64,000 nt of DNA from Dehalobacter sp. DCA (GTDB taxonomy: Bacteria > Bacillota > Desulfitobacteriia > Desulfitobacteriales > Syntrophobotulaceae): the NCBI RefSeq assembly GCF_000305775.1, contig NC_018866.1:434001-498000 (forward strand), in the 5' to 3' direction. How positions within the stretch are numbered: position 1 is the stretch's first letter; every line of letters begins with the position of its first letter. Shown here in pieces: positions 54,241-60,380 of the stretch. Below the pieces are notes generated by a model. That model searched no databases and had not been told where the DNA came from. It saw only the letters and a program-made list of their open reading frames with translations. The position numbers and the translations under genes are program-made.

Positions 54241-54939
54241 GTGAAACGTCCCAAAATCAAGGTTTTGATTGCAGATGGGCAGACACTTTTTGCTGAACGG
54301 ATGGCCTCGCTATTATTGCAGGAATCAGATATTGAAGTTGTGGGTATCGCACTAAATACAGCGGATTGTCTTAAAATAGCAAAAAAAGCTTATCCGGATG
54401 TTGTGTTGTTGGATATCAATTTGTCAGATGTTTGCAGTGTCGACATAATGGACGGGATTAATAAAGAATTTCCTGACACAAAGATTATTATCCTTACCGG
54501 ACAAAGCCCAGAGGAATTTATAGAAGTATCTTTTGTTCAAGGGTTAGCAGGATTTCTCTTAAAAGACTGTACAAAAAACGAAATAGTTACAGCCATCAGA
54601 AAAGCAATTAAGGGAGAGGTGTATCAATCCCAAAACCTTTCGGTTTATTTAAAACCAATTGCTGCACATTTACGGAGTAGAATGAATGATCCCGATCCAT
54701 TTTTGTTTCATGATGCTTCTTTAAATGTGAAGGATTGGCAAGAAGTTCTGACAGAGAGGGAATCTGAAATCCTCGTTCTAATTACAAAAGGTTTAAGAAA
54801 TAAGGAAATTGCCGCAAGTTTGGGAATTTCTAAACGTACGGTGGAGTATCATGTTAGCAACATTTTGGAAATGCTTGGAGTTAAATCTCGGTTGGAAGCA
54901 GTATTGAATTATAAAGAAATAAGGCGTGGAATAATGTAA
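54241..54939 (+). CDS. NarL/FixJ-type response regulator (LuxR HTH)
   Basis: The 232-aa protein has a receiver domain (about 5-120) with DGQTLF, phosphoacceptor Asp in PDVVLLDINLSDV and Lys in GFLLKDC. The LuxR-type HTH covers about 168-228 (LTERESEILVLITKGLRNKEIAASLGISKRTVEYHVSNILEMLGVKSRLEAV). No histidine kinase gene is adjacent, so its input is unknown. The GTG start follows TAGGAGGAT. It precedes the secreted-peptide gene and is a likely regulator of it. Confidence 0.92.
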   Translation: MKRPKIKVLIADGQTLFAERMASLLLQESDIEVVGIALNTADCLKIAKKAYPDVVLLDINLSDVCSVDIMDGINKEFPDTKIIILTGQSPEEFIEVSFVQGLAGFLLKDCTKNEIVTAIRKAIKGEVYQSQNLSVYLKPIAAHLRSRMNDPDPFLFHDASLNVKDWQEVLTERESEILVLITKGLRNKEIAASLGISKRTVEYHVSNILEMLGVKSRLEAVLNYKEIRRGIM

Positions 54940-55009
54940 TATTCGGCAATCTGAAATAGAGTTTTGTTAAGGATTACCTGTAGTAAATACGGTTTACATT
55001 ATGTGGAAA

Positions 55010-55035
55010 TTATTACAAAATGTAAATTGTAATAA
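55010..55035. promoter_or_regulatory. Operator-like inverted repeat TTATTACAA-N8-TTGTAATAA
   Basis: These are two perfect 9-base arms between the response regulator and the leader ORF. The form suits a dimeric LuxR-type regulator. The right arm overlaps the left arm of a larger inverted repeat (55033-55122). Confidence 0.5.
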
Positions 55036-55122
55036 CATTAATCTCAAATCAAAATGCAAGCCAATTAAAGTGAAAAAAAGACCTGTTTAGAAATTAACTC
55101 TGAAATTATGAGATTAATGTTA
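55033..55122. repeat. 14-bp perfect inverted repeat with 62-base spacing in the leader
   Basis: TAACATTAATCTCA (55033-55046) and TGAGATTAATGTTA (55109-55122) are exact reverse complements. They lie directly upstream of the small leader ORF. They could form a long RNA hairpin in the 5' leader or a pair of protein sites. Confidence 0.65.
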
Positions 55123-55162
55123 CTTCCCAAAGGTTTATGTCACAAAGGGAGGTGGACAGGCT

Positions 55163-55249
55163 ATGGCCCATATAAGATCTCCGTCTACGTTAAAAGGATC
55201 TCTCATCAGATACTATAAAAAGAGGATGAAAGGATTGGTGTTCACATGA
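55163..55249 (+). CDS. 28-codon leader ORF coupled to the secreted protein gene
   Basis: A strong ribosome site (AAAGGGAGGTGG) lies 8 bases before an ATG that opens a 28-residue, very basic peptide starting MAHIRSPSTLKGSLIRYYKK. The stop overlaps the next start in the arrangement ATGA (start 55246, stop 55247-55249). The ribosome site is much better than that of the following gene, so translation of the secreted protein may depend on this ORF. I know no homologue. Confidence 0.55.
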   Translation: MAHIRSPSTLKGSLIRYYKKRMKGLVFT

Positions 55250-55626
55250 AAACAAAAAGTAGAAAAAAATTAACCGTATTACTTGCTTTATCTCTGTGTT
55301 TATCCCTTGCACTTCCTGTTGCATCATATGCAGAATCGACTCTTGTAAATGCGAGTAGATCAGGATCAAGTTATTTCATTACTGCTTGGACGGATTATGC
55401 AACAAAGTCCTATTTAGGATCTACGGAAAGACTGGATTATGGATTTAATACTTTCTTGATTAATGAAGATGTTGCGTATTCTTATAGTGATGGAAGCATA
55501 CATTGCGCTAGAATTAAAAACGGAAGTGGGACTCATAATGGACCCATGGTAGTTGCAAGAGAAGACTCGAATCTTGAAGTACAACATTCCGGAACCACAG
55601 TGAATTATTATAGTATTGCACAATAA
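55246..55626 (+). CDS. Secreted small protein, bacteriocin-like candidate
   Basis: The 126-aa protein has a clear signal peptide: MKTKSRKK, a hydrophobic core LTVLLALSLCLSLALPVASYA, and cleavage near AYA/ES. The mature part of about 96 residues is rich in Ser, Tyr, Thr and Asn with one Cys (SIHCARIKN), suggesting a beta-rich fold. I do not recognise a family. It does not show the usual lactococcin 972 sequence, but the DUF1430 permease and ABC ATPase genes beyond the IS are of the type found with lactococcin-972-like bacteriocins. Substrate or toxin role is therefore inferred from context. Confidence 0.6.
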   Translation: MKTKSRKKLTVLLALSLCLSLALPVASYAESTLVNASRSGSSYFITAWTDYATKSYLGSTERLDYGFNTFLINEDVAYSYSDGSIHCARIKNGSGTHNGPMVVAREDSNLEVQHSGTTVNYYSIAQ

Positions 55627-55648
55627 GCTTAATATTTGAATAATACAT

Positions 55649-57678
55649 GGGGCTGTATCACAACTTAGCCCCAAGCGAAAGACGTCAATTTAAAAAAATG
55701 GCGTCTTTTCTTTTTGGGGTAGTGCAGACTCGCACAGTCCACCGCTCCCCCGTTCTCGCAGCTAAAAACAGAAACCCTCGCTAACATGCCAAAACCCCGC
55801 TGTTTACTGCAAGTTAACCGTTGGCATGTTTTAACGCTGCGGATTTCTGTTTTTTAACGCTGCTGCCACTAACGTCCGCTTGTGAATCTGTGCAAGTCTG
55901 CAATATTTGAAGAAATCAGCAGATATAGGGAGATATTTTGACGTGAATGTGGTATAATGTCTATGGATATAAATATTGCCATATTTGGAGGTATTTGAAT
56001 GTCTAAGAAAGGGCAGAAAGTACATACCAAGAAAGTATTTAAACCTTATGTGCAGGAACAACAAACACTGCCGTTAAGCATCGACAGCCTGATTCCTCAA
56101 AACCATGTCGTCCGAGTTGTGAATCGTGCTATCGATCGCATGAATCTCGAACCCTTGTTTGCCAAATATCCTGGAGGCGGCCGTTCCAGCTTTCACCCTG
56201 TCATGATGACCAAGTTATTGGTTTATGCGTATACGGACAGGGTTTTTTCATGCCGCCGGATAGCAAAAGCGGCCCGTGAAAATATTATGTATATGTGGCT
56301 GTGCGGCGGCAATCAGCCGGATTTCATGTCAGTTAACCGCTTCCGGAGTGAACGGATGAAAGAGGTTATTCTAGAAGTATTTGCTGAAGTTATTGAACTC
56401 TTAGTCAAAGAAAAATACATCAAGCTGGAAAATTATTTTTTAGACGGGACAAAAATTGAGGCCAATGCCAATAAATACAGTTGGGTATGGGGCAAATCCA
56501 CGAAGCGCTATAAAGAAGCGTTAAGGGAGAAATGCCGGGAATTATTTAAAGAAATCGATCAGATCAATGAAGAAGAAAATGCGGAATACGGCGACAGTGA
56601 TTTAGAAGAGCTAGGCAATGGCAAGCCCATTGACTCAGAGGCTATTGAAGAAGCCGTAAGGAAAATTGACGAGAGACTGGCTAAGAAATCGGAAGAAGAG
56701 ACAGTAGATGCTGAAACCAAAAAGTTAAAGAAAACAAGAAACACCCTTACGAAAGATTATCTGCCAAGAATGCAGAAATATGAACAGCAAGAACTGATCC
56801 TGGAAGAAAGAAACAGTTACTCCAAGACAGATCACGATGCCACCTTTATGCGAATGAAAGAAGACCATATGAAAAACGGTCAGTTAAAGCCAGGTTACAA
56901 TGTCCAGATCGGGACGGAGAACCAGTTTGTGGTCGGTTACAGTGTTCATCAGAGACCGGGCGATACCAGCTGTATGAAGGATCACCTGGAAGAATTAAAA
57001 ACGCTCCTGCATGGGGAATTACCAAAGAATATTATTGCCGATGCCGGCTATGGCAGCGAAGAAAATTACGACTATCTGCAGGAGAAAAAGCTTGTGTCTT
57101 ATGTCAAATATAATACCTTCCACAAAGAAGCCAGTAAGAAATGGAAAGAAGACATAACGAAACCACAGAACTTCACCTATGACCATGAAAATGATGAATA
57201 TATCTGCGGTTATGGGAGAACACTCATTTTCTTATACGAGCGGCACCAAAAAAGTGACAATGGCTATAGGAGTTTGATCCGAATCTATGAATGCCTGAAT
57301 TGTTCCGGGTGTCCTCATCGGAACCAGTGCGTGAAGTCATCCGATCCATACGCTAACAGAAGAATATATGTCAATCGCAAACTGAATGCCTATAAAGAAC
57401 AGGCCCGCAGGAATTTGTGTTCAGAAGAAGGTTTGCGCATGAGGAGCTTGAGGCCGGTCGAGGTTGAAAGCGTCTTTGGAGACATTAAAGGGAATCACGG
57501 TATGCGAAGATTCCTGTTAAAAGGGCTAGAAAAGGTTAAAATTGAGTGGGGATTACATTGCATCGCTCATAATATGAGAAAAATGGCGTTGATCACTGGA
57601 TAGGAAACTAAATTTTAAAAAAATTCACCATAAAAAGTGAGGGGGCGCAACCGAAACCTAAAGTTTCGTTACGCCCCC
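55649..57678 (+). mobile_element. IS1182-family insertion sequence, apparently intact
   Basis: The left end GGGGCTGTATCACAACTTAG and the reverse complement of the right end, GGGGGCGTAACGAAACTTTAG, are imperfect inverted repeats that bracket one full transposase gene. The outer bases TACAT...ATGTA also mirror each other. A deleted relative lies at 17541-17826. The element stands 22 bases after the secreted-protein stop codon and 114 bases before the DUF1430 gene. Exact ends are uncertain by a few bases. Confidence 0.85.
55999..57603 (+). CDS. IS1182-family transposase
   Basis: The 534-aa DDE transposase has an N-terminal DUF772-type domain (about 20-110: LPLSIDSLIPQNHVVRVVNRAIDRMNLEPLF..., CGGNQPDFMSVNRFRSE), then YFLDGTKIEANANKYSWVWGK with the first Asp, IIADAGYGSEENYDYL with the second, a zinc-like CLNCSGCPHRNQCVK, and VESVFGDIKGNHGMRRFLLKGLEKVKIEWGLHCIAHN with the catalytic Glu. 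The length and order are normal and no break is seen. AGGAGG-like GGAGG lies upstream. Confidence 0.95.
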   Translation: MSKKGQKVHTKKVFKPYVQEQQTLPLSIDSLIPQNHVVRVVNRAIDRMNLEPLFAKYPGGGRSSFHPVMMTKLLVYAYTDRVFSCRRIAKAARENIMYMWLCGGNQPDFMSVNRFRSERMKEVILEVFAEVIELLVKEKYIKLENYFLDGTKIEANANKYSWVWGKSTKRYKEALREKCRELFKEIDQINEEENAEYGDSDLEELGNGKPIDSEAIEEAVRKIDERLAKKSEEETVDAETKKLKKTRNTLTKDYLPRMQKYEQQELILEERNSYSKTDHDATFMRMKEDHMKNGQLKPGYNVQIGTENQFVVGYSVHQRPGDTSCMKDHLEELKTLLHGELPKNIIADAGYGSEENYDYLQEKKLVSYVKYNTFHKEASKKWKEDITKPQNFTYDHENDEYICGYGRTLIFLYERHQKSDNGYRSLIRIYECLNCSGCPHRNQCVKSSDPYANRRIYVNRKLNAYKEQARRNLCSEEGLRMRSLRPVEVESVFGDIKGNHGMRRFLLKGLEKVKIEWGLHCIAHNMRKMALITG

Positions 57679-57690
57679 ATGTACTTTCGA

Positions 57691-57792: not shown

Positions 57793-59775
57793 ATGAAGAA
57801 AATAAAAGTGATCGTCATATACTTGTTAATCACTATAGGCTTTATTTTTAATGGGGAATTGTTCATTCTTTATCTGGACGGCTTTCAAGAATCCTATTAC
57901 CAGTCGGGATTTGATTTTGTGAATCGAGAAGCTGCTATCGGGGAAAAAGAAGTCATCCAGGATTTTCTCGATGCAGGAAAGGAGTATGATGTCGATTTCT
58001 TCTTTGTGGACAGTACGATTATCTCGGCCTACGCAAAAGAGATCACGGTATTCGGCACGCCCAACGCTTTGAAAACATTACAAATCAAAGGTATTCTTGA
58101 AGGAAAGCATAACAGCCTTTTTATGGGAGAAACACAAGTTAGATATGCGGATTTCAGTAAGATTAAGACGATGGAAAAGTTCAAAGATTGTTATTACATC
58201 GGCGATCAATCCCAACTGATAGCCATGCGCTTATTTAAAGCGAGCCTGGTAGGTAAATACGGAGGCGGACTCCCTAAATTGTTCAGTTCCGATAAAGAGA
58301 CTTGGCTGAATCTATTGGCGGTTTGGTCTATCGTTTTTGGCTTGATCTTGCTGCTGACGATTTATGAAATCATCAGCCTGAAGAAGGAGATCACGGTGCG
58401 GATAACCCTTGGGGAGGATGTCCGAACTGTTTTTGGCAAAAATGCTTTGGCTGATATCGGTATCCTGGTCAGTGCCTTCCTTAGCTTGCCGTTCATATTA
58501 AGCCTATTATCCAATTCCAATGTACTTTTTAAAATTAAAGCCCTTGCCCTGTCCTTTCTGGTGTTAATAATTGTGAATACCCTGATCAATGCGGCAATTT
58601 TGCGCGTTAACTTTAAAAAAGATATCGCCGTCAGACGCTCCGGCGGCGGACTGCTTACAGCCAACTATATCCTGAAAACCATAACCACCATACTCACCCT
58701 CATTGTCTTGTCCAGCAATTTCTCCATCCTAGCTCAAGGGTATCTGATGTATAAGCAGCATGATTTTTTCTCCGAACATAAGGATTATAGTTACTATCAA
58801 TTGAATTACAGGGTGAATAATCACTTAGGTAAAACAATATCAGATGAAAGCATGATGAATCAAGAATTCTATAAACGGTTTCAAAAATATTCCTTGCAAT
58901 ACAACGATTTGACAGCTAATTTCAGCAGCCCGTACCCTGTTATCTTAATCAATAGAAACGCCTTTGAAGAAATATCAAGAGTAAGCAATGCCTTGACAGC
59001 GACGGTCAAAAGCGCCGACGACGATTATTATATCCTGATCCCGTCCGGCATATCGGAGGATTCTCAGGAATGTCTTATTGCGAAAGAAATGATCACTGCT
59101 TTTTTTGGAGAAAAAATTCTTTCAAGCGTTAAAACCAAAGTATATGACGGCGACATGAGTTTTGTGGGCATTCATAATCAGCCGAACAAGTACGTAAGCC
59201 GACCAATGGCGAACCCGATCATAATTTTCAATAATACGCTTCAAAAAATTGATGAATATCAGGCAGGTAACGATATGTACTATGCCTATGATACGATGTA
59301 CAATATCCCCGAACAGGACTTCAATCAGTTCATCGCGGAGTATCAGCTGTCTGATCAAATCAGGGTCAAATCCAATGCCCTGGATATCTATGAACACAAT
59401 TGGGCGATTATCTTACGCAATGTGAAATTAGTCGTTATTTTATCGATCTTTTTGCTGGCTCTGGAAATCGCGCTGATCAGTTTTATTATCAAACTGGAGT
59501 ATCAGTTCAACGCAATGGAACTGGCGCTGAAAAAAGTACTTGGATACTCACTCTTTGCCAGAAATAAGAGGTTGATACTTATCACGTTAGTCGTTTTTCT
59601 GGTGAGCATCATCCTGGCGTTTTTATTTAGAGAGCTTTTAGGGATTGCCGAAGGTGCCGATCTCATCTGGGGAGGGCTCATTTTGCTGGCGGTTGAGTTA
59701 ATATTTATTGCTAAGAAGGCAAGTACAGTGGAAAAAGCCAATGTACCTGCCATTCTAAAAGGAAGGGTATTATGA
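57793..59775 (+). CDS. DUF1430 bacteriocin-associated integral membrane protein (ABC permease)
   Basis: The 660-aa protein has an N-terminal helix (about 7-28), a large outer domain, three helices at about 178-265, another near 294-318, and three helices at about 545-650. This is a FtsX/MacB-like permease topology. Family members (bacteriocin-associated integral membrane proteins) accompany lactococcin-972-type genes and an ABC ATPase. The stop overlaps the ATPase start by 4 bases (ATGA), so the two are coupled. Confidence 0.82.
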   Translation: MKKIKVIVIYLLITIGFIFNGELFILYLDGFQESYYQSGFDFVNREAAIGEKEVIQDFLDAGKEYDVDFFFVDSTIISAYAKEITVFGTPNALKTLQIKGILEGKHNSLFMGETQVRYADFSKIKTMEKFKDCYYIGDQSQLIAMRLFKASLVGKYGGGLPKLFSSDKETWLNLLAVWSIVFGLILLLTIYEIISLKKEITVRITLGEDVRTVFGKNALADIGILVSAFLSLPFILSLLSNSNVLFKIKALALSFLVLIIVNTLINAAILRVNFKKDIAVRRSGGGLLTANYILKTITTILTLIVLSSNFSILAQGYLMYKQHDFFSEHKDYSYYQLNYRVNNHLGKTISDESMMNQEFYKRFQKYSLQYNDLTANFSSPYPVILINRNAFEEISRVSNALTATVKSADDDYYILIPSGISEDSQECLIAKEMITAFFGEKILSSVKTKVYDGDMSFVGIHNQPNKYVSRPMANPIIIFNNTLQKIDEYQAGNDMYYAYDTMYNIPEQDFNQFIAEYQLSDQIRVKSNALDIYEHNWAIILRNVKLVVILSIFLLALEIALISFIIKLEYQFNAMELALKKVLGYSLFARNKRLILITLVVFLVSIILAFLFRELLGIAEGADLIWGGLILLAVELIFIAKKASTVEKANVPAILKGRVL

Positions 59776-60380
59776 TTGAAGGAATTAATATCACCAAAAA
59801 GTTTGAGGATCTGACTCTATTTCAAGACTATAATTTTCTCATCAAGGATCAGGAATTCGTCTGCTTTTCCGGTGCCAGCGGAACGGGAAAGACCACATTA
59901 TTAAACATTATTGGCTTAATAGAGCCCATTGACGCCGGAAGTTTGAGAATTAACGGAATGGAGTACACGACGAATAAGCAAAAATTGGCATATTTCCGCT
60001 CTGTCGTCGGTTTTCTCTTTCAAAATTTTGCGCTGATCGAGAGTAAAACAGTTGAACAGAACCTTGAGTTGATCAGGCGGGACAGCCGCACGAATTATAA
60101 GATTGAAGAAGTGCTGGAAAGAGTCGGGCTAGAAAGTAAACTGAATAGTAAGGTTTATACACTGTCCGGCGGAGAGCAGCAGCGCGTGGCGTTGGCCCGT
60201 TTATTTCTTAAAAAATGCGACATCATTTTAGCTGACGAACCAACAGGATCACTGGACGGCAAAAACGCTCAAATTATTATGGATATTCTGCTTTCGCTGA
60301 ACGCTGAAGGGAAAACCGTCATTATCGTGACACATGATCAAAAAATTAAAGATAAAGCGCGAAGGGTTATCGAACTATAA
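59772..60380 (+). CDS. ABC transporter ATPase of the bacteriocin-export/immunity type
   Basis: The 202-aa ATPase has Walker A in CFSGASGTGKTTLLNIIGL, Q-loop in FLFQNFALIE, signature LSGGEQQRVALARLF, Walker B in CDIILADEPTGSLDGKNA and H-loop in IIVTHD. It belongs to the MacB/LolD-like group and pairs with the DUF1430 permease. It may export the secreted protein or, more likely as the latter has a Sec signal, give immunity or envelope protection. Confidence 0.9.
   Translation: MIEGINITKKFEDLTLFQDYNFLIKDQEFVCFSGASGTGKTTLLNIIGLIEPIDAGSLRINGMEYTTNKQKLAYFRSVVGFLFQNFALIESKTVEQNLELIRRDSRTNYKIEEVLERVGLESKLNSKVYTLSGGEQQRVALARLFLKKCDIILADEPTGSLDGKNAQIIMDILLSLNAEGKTVIIVTHDQKIKDKARRVIEL

What the first reader, a model, noticed from the sequence alone, without database searches (positions are those of the whole stretch)
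55163..55249. Strong-site 28-codon basic ORF translationally coupled to the secreted protein
AAAGGGAGGTGG stands 8 bases before an ATG, the peptide carries eight Lys/Arg in 28 residues, and the stop overlaps the next start (ATGA). The downstream gene has only a poor ribosome site of its own. The ORF is too short for ordinary gene finding. It could be a regulatory leader peptide or a second active peptide.
Basis: partly seen in the sequence, partly recalled or inferred. Interest (0 to 1): 0.65.

Follow-up and report, generated by a model that had tools for sequence, protein, structure and literature searches.

The report
Conserved leader cistron before a bacteriocin
The short reading frame is real: its strong ribosome site and first 15 codons form an undescribed start cassette that related bacteria carry before quite different secreted-protein genes, and here it runs directly into the gene of a mediterrocin-type bacteriocin, most likely as a translated leader rather than a second toxin.

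Summary
The ORF at 55163-55249 exists as described, with one miscount: 7 Lys/Arg, not 8. Its ribosome site is the strongest of 2,176 ATGs in the window; the other five ATGs of that class all open frames of 120-462 aa. The downstream gene (55246-55626) encodes a mediterrocin-family bacteriocin (NCBIfam NF052268, 103 bits, cut-off 40). Its immunity-type DUF1430 and ABC genes are displaced by an IS1182 insertion.

The leader is not part of known mediterrocin clusters: no inspected homologue carries it. Instead the ribosome site plus codons 1-15 (MAHIRSPSTLKGSLI) recurs at four other loci (three genera of the class counting this one) before unrelated secreted or lipoprotein genes. Protein-level constraint appears in the reading frame only (P 0.01-0.04 for four of six pairs; alternative frames 0.47-0.99). 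A fifth copy is frameshifted. Codons 16-28, which hold 5 of the 7 basic residues, and the ATGA overlap exist only here.

Best reading: a translated leader cistron from a shared promoter/5'-UTR cassette, here fused to the bacteriocin so that ribosomes terminating at TGA can reinitiate. Coupling is inferred, not shown. mRNA protection by the ribosome site, or decay from a small HTH regulator gene, remain open. "Second active peptide" has no support.

The parts
54241..54939 (+). LuxR/NarL-type response regulator gene, GTG start; nearest upstream gene, possible regulator
   Evidence: Pfam Response_reg + GerE. Best homologues in relatives are not beside the cassette, so a regulatory role is a guess.
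55010..55035 (.). palindromic block TTATTACAA-N8-TTGTAATAA, possible operator or promoter region
   Evidence: the repeat finder I5/I1; function inferred
55030..55125 (+). promoter/5'-UTR cassette (R2): AATCTCAAATCAAAATGCAAGCCAATTA ... ATGAGATTAATGTTACT
   Evidence: Covariance model R2: 7 copies in G068, 1 in G040, 1 in this genome, none in the other 79 genomes of the class
55033..55046 (+). left arm of a 14-bp perfect inverted repeat
   Evidence: the repeat finder I2; 7 bp (AATCTCA/TGAGATT) kept in most of 6 copies, no covariation
55109..55122 (+). right arm of the 14-bp inverted repeat
55144..55155 (+). Shine-Dalgarno AAAGGGAGGTGG of the leader cistron
   Evidence: -12.8 kcal/mol, strongest in the window; GGAGGTGGACAGGC-ATG conserved in 5 genomes
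55163..55249 (+). 28-codon leader ORF
   Evidence: no Pfam/NCBIfam match
55163..55207 (+). conserved part of the leader, codons 1-15 MAHIRSPSTLKGSLI
   Evidence: homologues in G068, G040, G018, G015; frame-specific conservation
55208..55249 (+). codons 16-28 plus stop, RYYKKRMKGLVFT*, unique to this locus
   Evidence: 24-36% base identity to the other copies; overlaps the weak ribosome site of the next gene
55246..55626 (+). mediterrocin-family (lactococcin-972-like) bacteriocin precursor with signal peptide, 126 aa
   Evidence: NCBIfam NF052268 103.3 bits, cut-off 40; aligned with mature mediterrocin
55999..57603 (+). IS1182-family transposase, inserted between the bacteriocin and its immunity/ABC genes
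   Evidence: NF033551 449 bits; identical element ends at 4 other genome sites
57793..59775 (+). DUF1430 multi-pass membrane protein (probable immunity/export partner)
   Evidence: PF07242 above cut-off; TIGR01654 below its cut-off
59772..60380 (+). ABC ATPase of the lactococcin-972 export type
   Evidence: TIGR03608 238 bits, cut-off 255

Best explanation
The ORF is a translated leader cistron. It belongs to a start cassette (promoter/5'-UTR block, strong Shine-Dalgarno, about 15-17 codons) that bacteria of this class use before several unrelated secreted or lipoprotein genes. In relatives the leader stops 17-22 codons in and the gene behind it starts separately. In this genome the cassette has been joined to a mediterrocin-family bacteriocin gene that has only a weak ribosome site. 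The ancestral leader stop was lost, so the frame runs on for 13 codons and ends on the bacteriocin's start codon (ATGA). Ribosomes recruited by the strong site would translate the 28 codons, keep the purine-rich region before the bacteriocin start open, terminate at TGA and reinitiate on the overlapping ATG. Shown: the anatomy, the conservation of the cassette, its frame-specific codon conservation, and its absence from other mediterrocin loci. Inferred: that it is translated, that reinitiation drives bacteriocin synthesis, and that the cassette is a co-regulated promoter unit.
For: Strongest ribosome site among 2,176 ATGs, others of that class all heading real-length frames. GGAGGTGGACAGGC-ATG and codons 1-15 at 73-80% base identity between the window and G068, G040, G018; next 45 bases only 24-36%. 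In-frame residue conservation exceeds random substitution (47/56 kept, P=0.003; window branch 6 base changes, 13/14 residues kept, P=0.005). Pairwise P 0.011, 0.014, 0.038, 0.012 for four of six pairs, while the two other frames give 0.47-0.99. The genes behind the copies are unrelated: Amidase_6 protein, SurA-like 250-aa protein, lipoprotein, bacteriocin, so the cassette is not carried along by a conserved gene. All copies point towards the gene behind them. Bacteriocin ribosome site is weak (-7.4, 11-nt spacing) where most gut homologues have AAAGGAGGT at -13.1. ATGA overlaps are established to allow termination-reinitiation (PMC6728339).
Against: Coupling geometry is found in one genome only and could be accidental. 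Only four independent sequences carry the codon test; two pairs (G068a-G040, G068a-G018) show no constraint. One copy (G068d) is frameshifted to MA*. Some conservation may be RNA-level: an 8-bp stem can form over the leader's own ribosome site. Predicted accessibility of the bacteriocin site does not change with a ribosome at the leader stop (0.35 vs 0.35). No expression data.
Confidence: 0.5

Rival explanations
1. STAB-SD / RNA-level element: the strong Shine-Dalgarno near the 5' end binds ribosomes and protects the mRNA, or the hairpin over it acts as an RNA switch; the peptide itself is irrelevant.
For: The most conserved bases are the SD and spacer (75-95% identity). A consensus stem GUGGAC-GG/CC-GUCUAC over the SD is kept in most copies. 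The leader lies well upstream of, and not coupled to, the gene in relatives. G068d keeps the SD region but not the frame.
Against: Frame-specific residue conservation and synonymous changes in codons 2-15 are not expected. The stem shows no convincing covariation (1 of 11 pairs with a double change, 2 of 5 sequences broken there).
Confidence: 0.2
2. Evolutionary remnant: the cassette is the 5' end of a small GerE-type HTH regulator gene that decayed; the leader ORF is what remains of its N-terminus and the overlap with the bacteriocin is accidental.
For: In G068b the same start block (ACAGGCTATGGTTCATAGAAG..CTCCGT) opens an intact 71-aa GerE HTH gene. In G068d a broken leader precedes an HTH-like fragment closed by a terminator-like hairpin.
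Against: Beyond about codon 9 the leader and the HTH gene are unrelated. The other loci share the same non-HTH continuation (PST.KGSLI..Q*), with synonymous change, which decay would not give.
Confidence: 0.15
3. Ribosome-arrest / attenuation leader: the nascent MAHIRxPSTxKGSLI peptide or its codons sense a small molecule or translation status and switch expression of the gene behind.
For: Conserved short peptide in front of unrelated genes of similar class. In G018/G015 a CCTC just after the leader stop could pair with the GGAGG of the next gene (sequence).
Against: Modelled accessibility of the downstream SD hardly responds to a ribosome at the leader stop. In the window the post-leader sequence is replaced. 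No terminator found at 54900-55720.
Confidence: 0.1
4. Second active peptide: a secreted cationic antimicrobial or signal peptide made with the bacteriocin, like the Spp peptides upstream of cereolysin O in the Bacillus cereus group.
For: Seven Lys/Arg and no acidic residue. Precedent of a small multicopy peptide gene before a secreted-protein gene, antibacterial only at millimolar concentration (PMC1913518).
Against: 5 of the 7 basic residues lie in the locus-specific tail; the conserved part has only R5 and K11. No signal peptide or double-glycine motif by eye. None of the inspected mediterrocin loci outside the class has it.
Confidence: 0.05

Closest known systems
Spp peptides upstream of cereolysin O, Bacillus cereus group (PMC1913518)
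   Same: Short multicopy peptide gene (26 aa), lineage-restricted, one copy co-transcribed ahead of an unrelated secreted-protein gene under a common regulator; product function unresolved.
   Different: Spp has a double-glycine motif and is PlcR-regulated; no sequence comparison was run. Here only about 15 codons are conserved, the genes behind differ, and the stop overlaps the next start in one genome.
Termination-reinitiation at ATGA overlaps (PMC6728339)
   Same: Stop/start overlap ATGA with a strongly initiated upstream ORF and a weak site for the downstream ORF.
   Different: The upstream ORF is a 28-codon leader, not a full gene, and the overlap is not seen at the other copies.
STAB-SD leaders (Agaisse and Lereclus 1996, cry3A; seen here only in the reference list of PMC1913518)
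   Same: Strong Shine-Dalgarno in a long 5' region ahead of a secreted or abundant product.
   Different: STAB-SD works without translation (own knowledge); this site is followed by a conserved, frame-constrained ORF.
Mediterrocin gene cluster of Mediterraneibacter gnavus (PMC12345188, NCBIfam NF052268)
   Same: Bacteriocin, DUF1430 membrane protein, ABC ATPase, regulator and mobile elements nearby.
   Different: Mediterrocin loci outside this class have a ribosome site directly before the bacteriocin and no leader cassette; here an IS1182 element separates bacteriocin from immunity genes.

Membership tests
Mediterrocin / lactococcin-972-like bacteriocin (gene 55246-55626) | Sequence match to the curated family | tested here: met
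   NF052268 103.3 bits, cut-off 40; 35% identity to mature mediterrocin, shared YG.NT..INED block
Mediterrocin / lactococcin-972-like bacteriocin (gene 55246-55626) | DUF1430 membrane protein and ABC ATPase in the cluster | tested here: met
   PF07242 above cut-off; TIGR03608 just under its cut-off; separated from the bacteriocin by IS1182
Mediterrocin / lactococcin-972-like bacteriocin (gene 55246-55626) | Secreted antibacterial activity | not testable with these tools
   needs bench assay
Translationally coupled (termination-reinitiation) gene pair | Overlapping stop and start codons | tested here: met
   ATGA at 55246-55249
Translationally coupled (termination-reinitiation) gene pair | Downstream translation depends on translation of the upstream ORF | not testable with these tools
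   needs reporter with leader stop mutations
Translationally coupled (termination-reinitiation) gene pair | Overlap conserved among orthologous loci | tested here: inconclusive
   No intact orthologous locus found; absent at the other leader copies, which precede other genes
Leader-peptide cistron | Short ORF with its own ribosome site, conserved at codon level | tested here: met
   modest statistics, four independent sequences
Leader-peptide cistron | Alternative RNA structures controlled by leader translation | tested here: inconclusive
   fold models show no clear switch
STAB-SD element | Strong SD in the 5' region that stabilises mRNA without translation | tested here: inconclusive
   strong SD shown; stability not testable here, and frame conservation argues against SD alone
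Spp-type secreted small peptide | Conserved double-glycine motif or signal sequence | tested here: not met
   none in any of five copies, by reading the sequences
Known structured RNA (Rfam 15) | Match to a covariance model | tested here: not met
   only chance-level hits far under gathering scores

The most novel reading that the evidence does not exclude
The cassette (R2 5'-UTR block, strong SD and the MAHIRxPSTxKGSLI leader) is an undescribed regulatory unit that a lineage of anaerobes places in front of bacteriocin, immunity, ECF sigma and other secreted-protein genes, with a nascent-peptide or codon-dependent step that tunes their synthesis; here it was captured by a horizontally acquired mediterrocin gene.
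Probability: 0.2. Interest if true: 0.65.

Novelty: new member of a known kind. Interest (0 to 1): 0.42.

Why it matters
It shows how a bacteriocin gene can acquire expression by joining a host start cassette instead of bringing its own ribosome site, and it names a small conserved leader that gene finders miss. If the cassette is a regulatory unit it links bacteriocin, immunity, sigma-factor and secreted-protein genes in this class of anaerobes into one testable group. It is also a clean case for measuring termination-reinitiation from a 28-codon leader.

Tried and rejected
Direct homologue search with the bacteriocin alone found nothing in genome contigs, viral contigs or plasmids and one weak phage-collection record; the alignment search gave 15 loci. 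The 28-aa peptide has no match in Pfam, NCBIfam, plasmids or phages. Six viral contigs with GGAGGTGGACAGGCNATG are unrelated stretches. Rfam: nothing. Pattern search over 398 genomes of the phylum found only G000 and G068. A weak R1 hit in G013 lies inside an ordinary gene region and is a chance match. The idea that the adjacent response regulator is the conserved partner of the cassette was dropped: its best homologues lie elsewhere in relatives. Attenuation by pairing of the downstream SD was modelled and not supported. A Pfam hit to a neurotoxin domain at E=0.07 is chance.

Full report
OBSERVATION. The ribosome site AAAGGGAGGTGG pairs with the 16S tail at -12.8 kcal/mol. Of 2,176 ATGs on both strands only six reach -12.0, this is the strongest, and the other five open frames of 120-462 aa. 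The peptide has 7 Lys/Arg, two in codons 1-15 and five in codons 16-28. The tail's lysines and arginines come from reading the purine-rich region ahead of the next start (AAA AAG AGG ATG AAA GGA).

THE GENE BEHIND. 55246-55626 is a mediterrocin-family bacteriocin (NF052268, 103.3 bits against a cut-off of 40). This family was named in 2025 from Mediterraneibacter gnavus (PMC12345188). Downstream, after an IS1182 transposase, come the DUF1430 membrane protein and the ABC ATPase typical of lactococcin-972-like clusters. The genome is a 3.07-Mb chromosome.

ORTHOLOGOUS LOCI. Fifteen bacteriocin homologues were fetched, plus one from a Bacillus-like genome (probably the same contig as L029). Most have their own ribosome site directly before the bacteriocin, often AAAGGAGGT at -13.1 kcal/mol, and none of those searched carries the leader. 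The two nearest relatives are uninformative: in G001 only about the last 49 codons survive, and in G049 the contig starts inside the gene.

A SHARED CASSETTE. A DNA search of the class showed that the leader region recurs elsewhere. Copies lie in G068 (C1:1025100-1025186), G040 (C1:3225053-3225138), G018 (C1:3169842-3169927) and G015 (C69:29053-29138). They encode MMHLRSPSTTKGSLIILVITNL, MAHIRPPSTIIGSRIFQ, MAHIGLPSTIKGSLISQ and MAHIWLPSTIKGSLISQ. A profile of the block finds these, the window, and one more copy in G068 (C1:1245146-1245231), and nothing else convincing in 82 genomes. A degenerate pattern finds only G000 and G068 among 398 genomes of the phylum. The window matches the others at 80-95% over the 20 bases before the ATG and 73-80% over codons 1-15, then only 24-36%: codons 16-28 and the ATGA overlap are local. 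The genes behind the copies are unrelated (an Amidase_6 protein, a SurA-like 250-aa secreted protein, a 197-aa lipoprotein), so a common neighbour does not explain the conservation.

PEPTIDE OR RNA. Against a consensus, codons 2-15 keep 47 of 56 residues across four independent sequences (random substitution P=0.003); the window's branch has six base changes and keeps 13 of 14 residues (P=0.005). Pairwise, four of six comparisons are significant in frame 0 (0.011-0.038), while frames 1 and 2 give 0.47-0.99. Two pairs with G068a show nothing, so the support is modest. An 8-bp stem can form over the leader's SD, without convincing covariation, so an RNA role is not excluded. The G068 copy at 1245146 is frameshifted to MA* and lies before an HTH-like fragment and a strong hairpin followed by T's.

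UPSTREAM BLOCK. Before the leader lies a second conserved block with AATCTCAAATCAAA...TGAGATT; in the window the repeat is a perfect 14-bp inverted repeat 62 nt apart. A model of it finds seven copies in G068, one in G040 and one here, and none in the other 79 genomes. They precede DUF1430 genes, an HTH gene, an ECF sigma gene and secreted-protein genes, always pointing at the gene. This looks like a promoter/5'-UTR unit; no Rfam family matches. One copy opens directly into a 71-aa GerE HTH gene whose first codons resemble the leader's, which is why decay from such a gene is kept as a rival.

MECHANISM. The best-supported account is a leader cistron of a shared start cassette, captured by a bacteriocin gene with a weak ribosome site. 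Ribosomes from the strong site would translate through the weak one and reinitiate at ATGA. ATGA reinitiation is an established process (PMC6728339). What is shown is anatomy and conservation; translation and coupling are inferred. Modelled accessibility of the bacteriocin site does not change with a ribosome at the leader stop, so the structural part of the mechanism is not supported by folding.

COMPARISON. It works most like a coupled leader ORF, and the nearest published parallel is Spp, a small multicopy peptide gene ahead of cereolysin O (PMC1913518). It is not part of the published mediterrocin cluster description.

VERDICT. A real, undescribed, lineage-restricted leader; ordinary in kind. 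The coupling claim is plausible and unproven; the second-peptide claim is not supported.

Noticed in passing
window 55640-57690: An IS1182 element sits between the bacteriocin gene and its DUF1430/ABC genes, near the position where the related G049 locus has a long hairpin between the two genes; identical element ends occur at four other sites in the genome.
   Followed up: partly
L070 2834-13643 (G068:C1:1019333-1030142): One relative carries three DUF1430 genes, two of them followed by lactococcin-972-type ABC ATPase genes, in tandem, interspersed with small secreted proteins and repeated copies of the 5' cassette: an expanded bacteriocin-like island.
   Followed up: partly
L117 1501-2213 (G068:C1:104578): The 5' cassette also precedes an ECF-sigma-like gene followed by an anti-sigma-like gene (by eye), hinting that this sigma factor could control the cassette regulon.
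   Followed up: no
L075 12660-14930 (G001): In the same-genus relative the bacteriocin gene is reduced to its C-terminal part and lies next to a sigma/anti-sigma-like pair, while DUF1430 and ABC genes stay intact: immunity kept, toxin lost.
   Followed up: partly
L015 5880-5995 (Oscillibacter valericigenes): The closest full-length bacteriocin homologue has an ATG with a strong AAAGGAG site followed at once by a stop (ATG CAG TAA) about 107 nt upstream, another strong-site mini-ORF before a bacteriocin.
   Followed up: no
G000:C1:716169-716429: A fragment of a paralogue of the adjacent response regulator (82% identical over its C-terminal 87 residues, one stop inside) lies elsewhere in the genome.
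   Followed up: no
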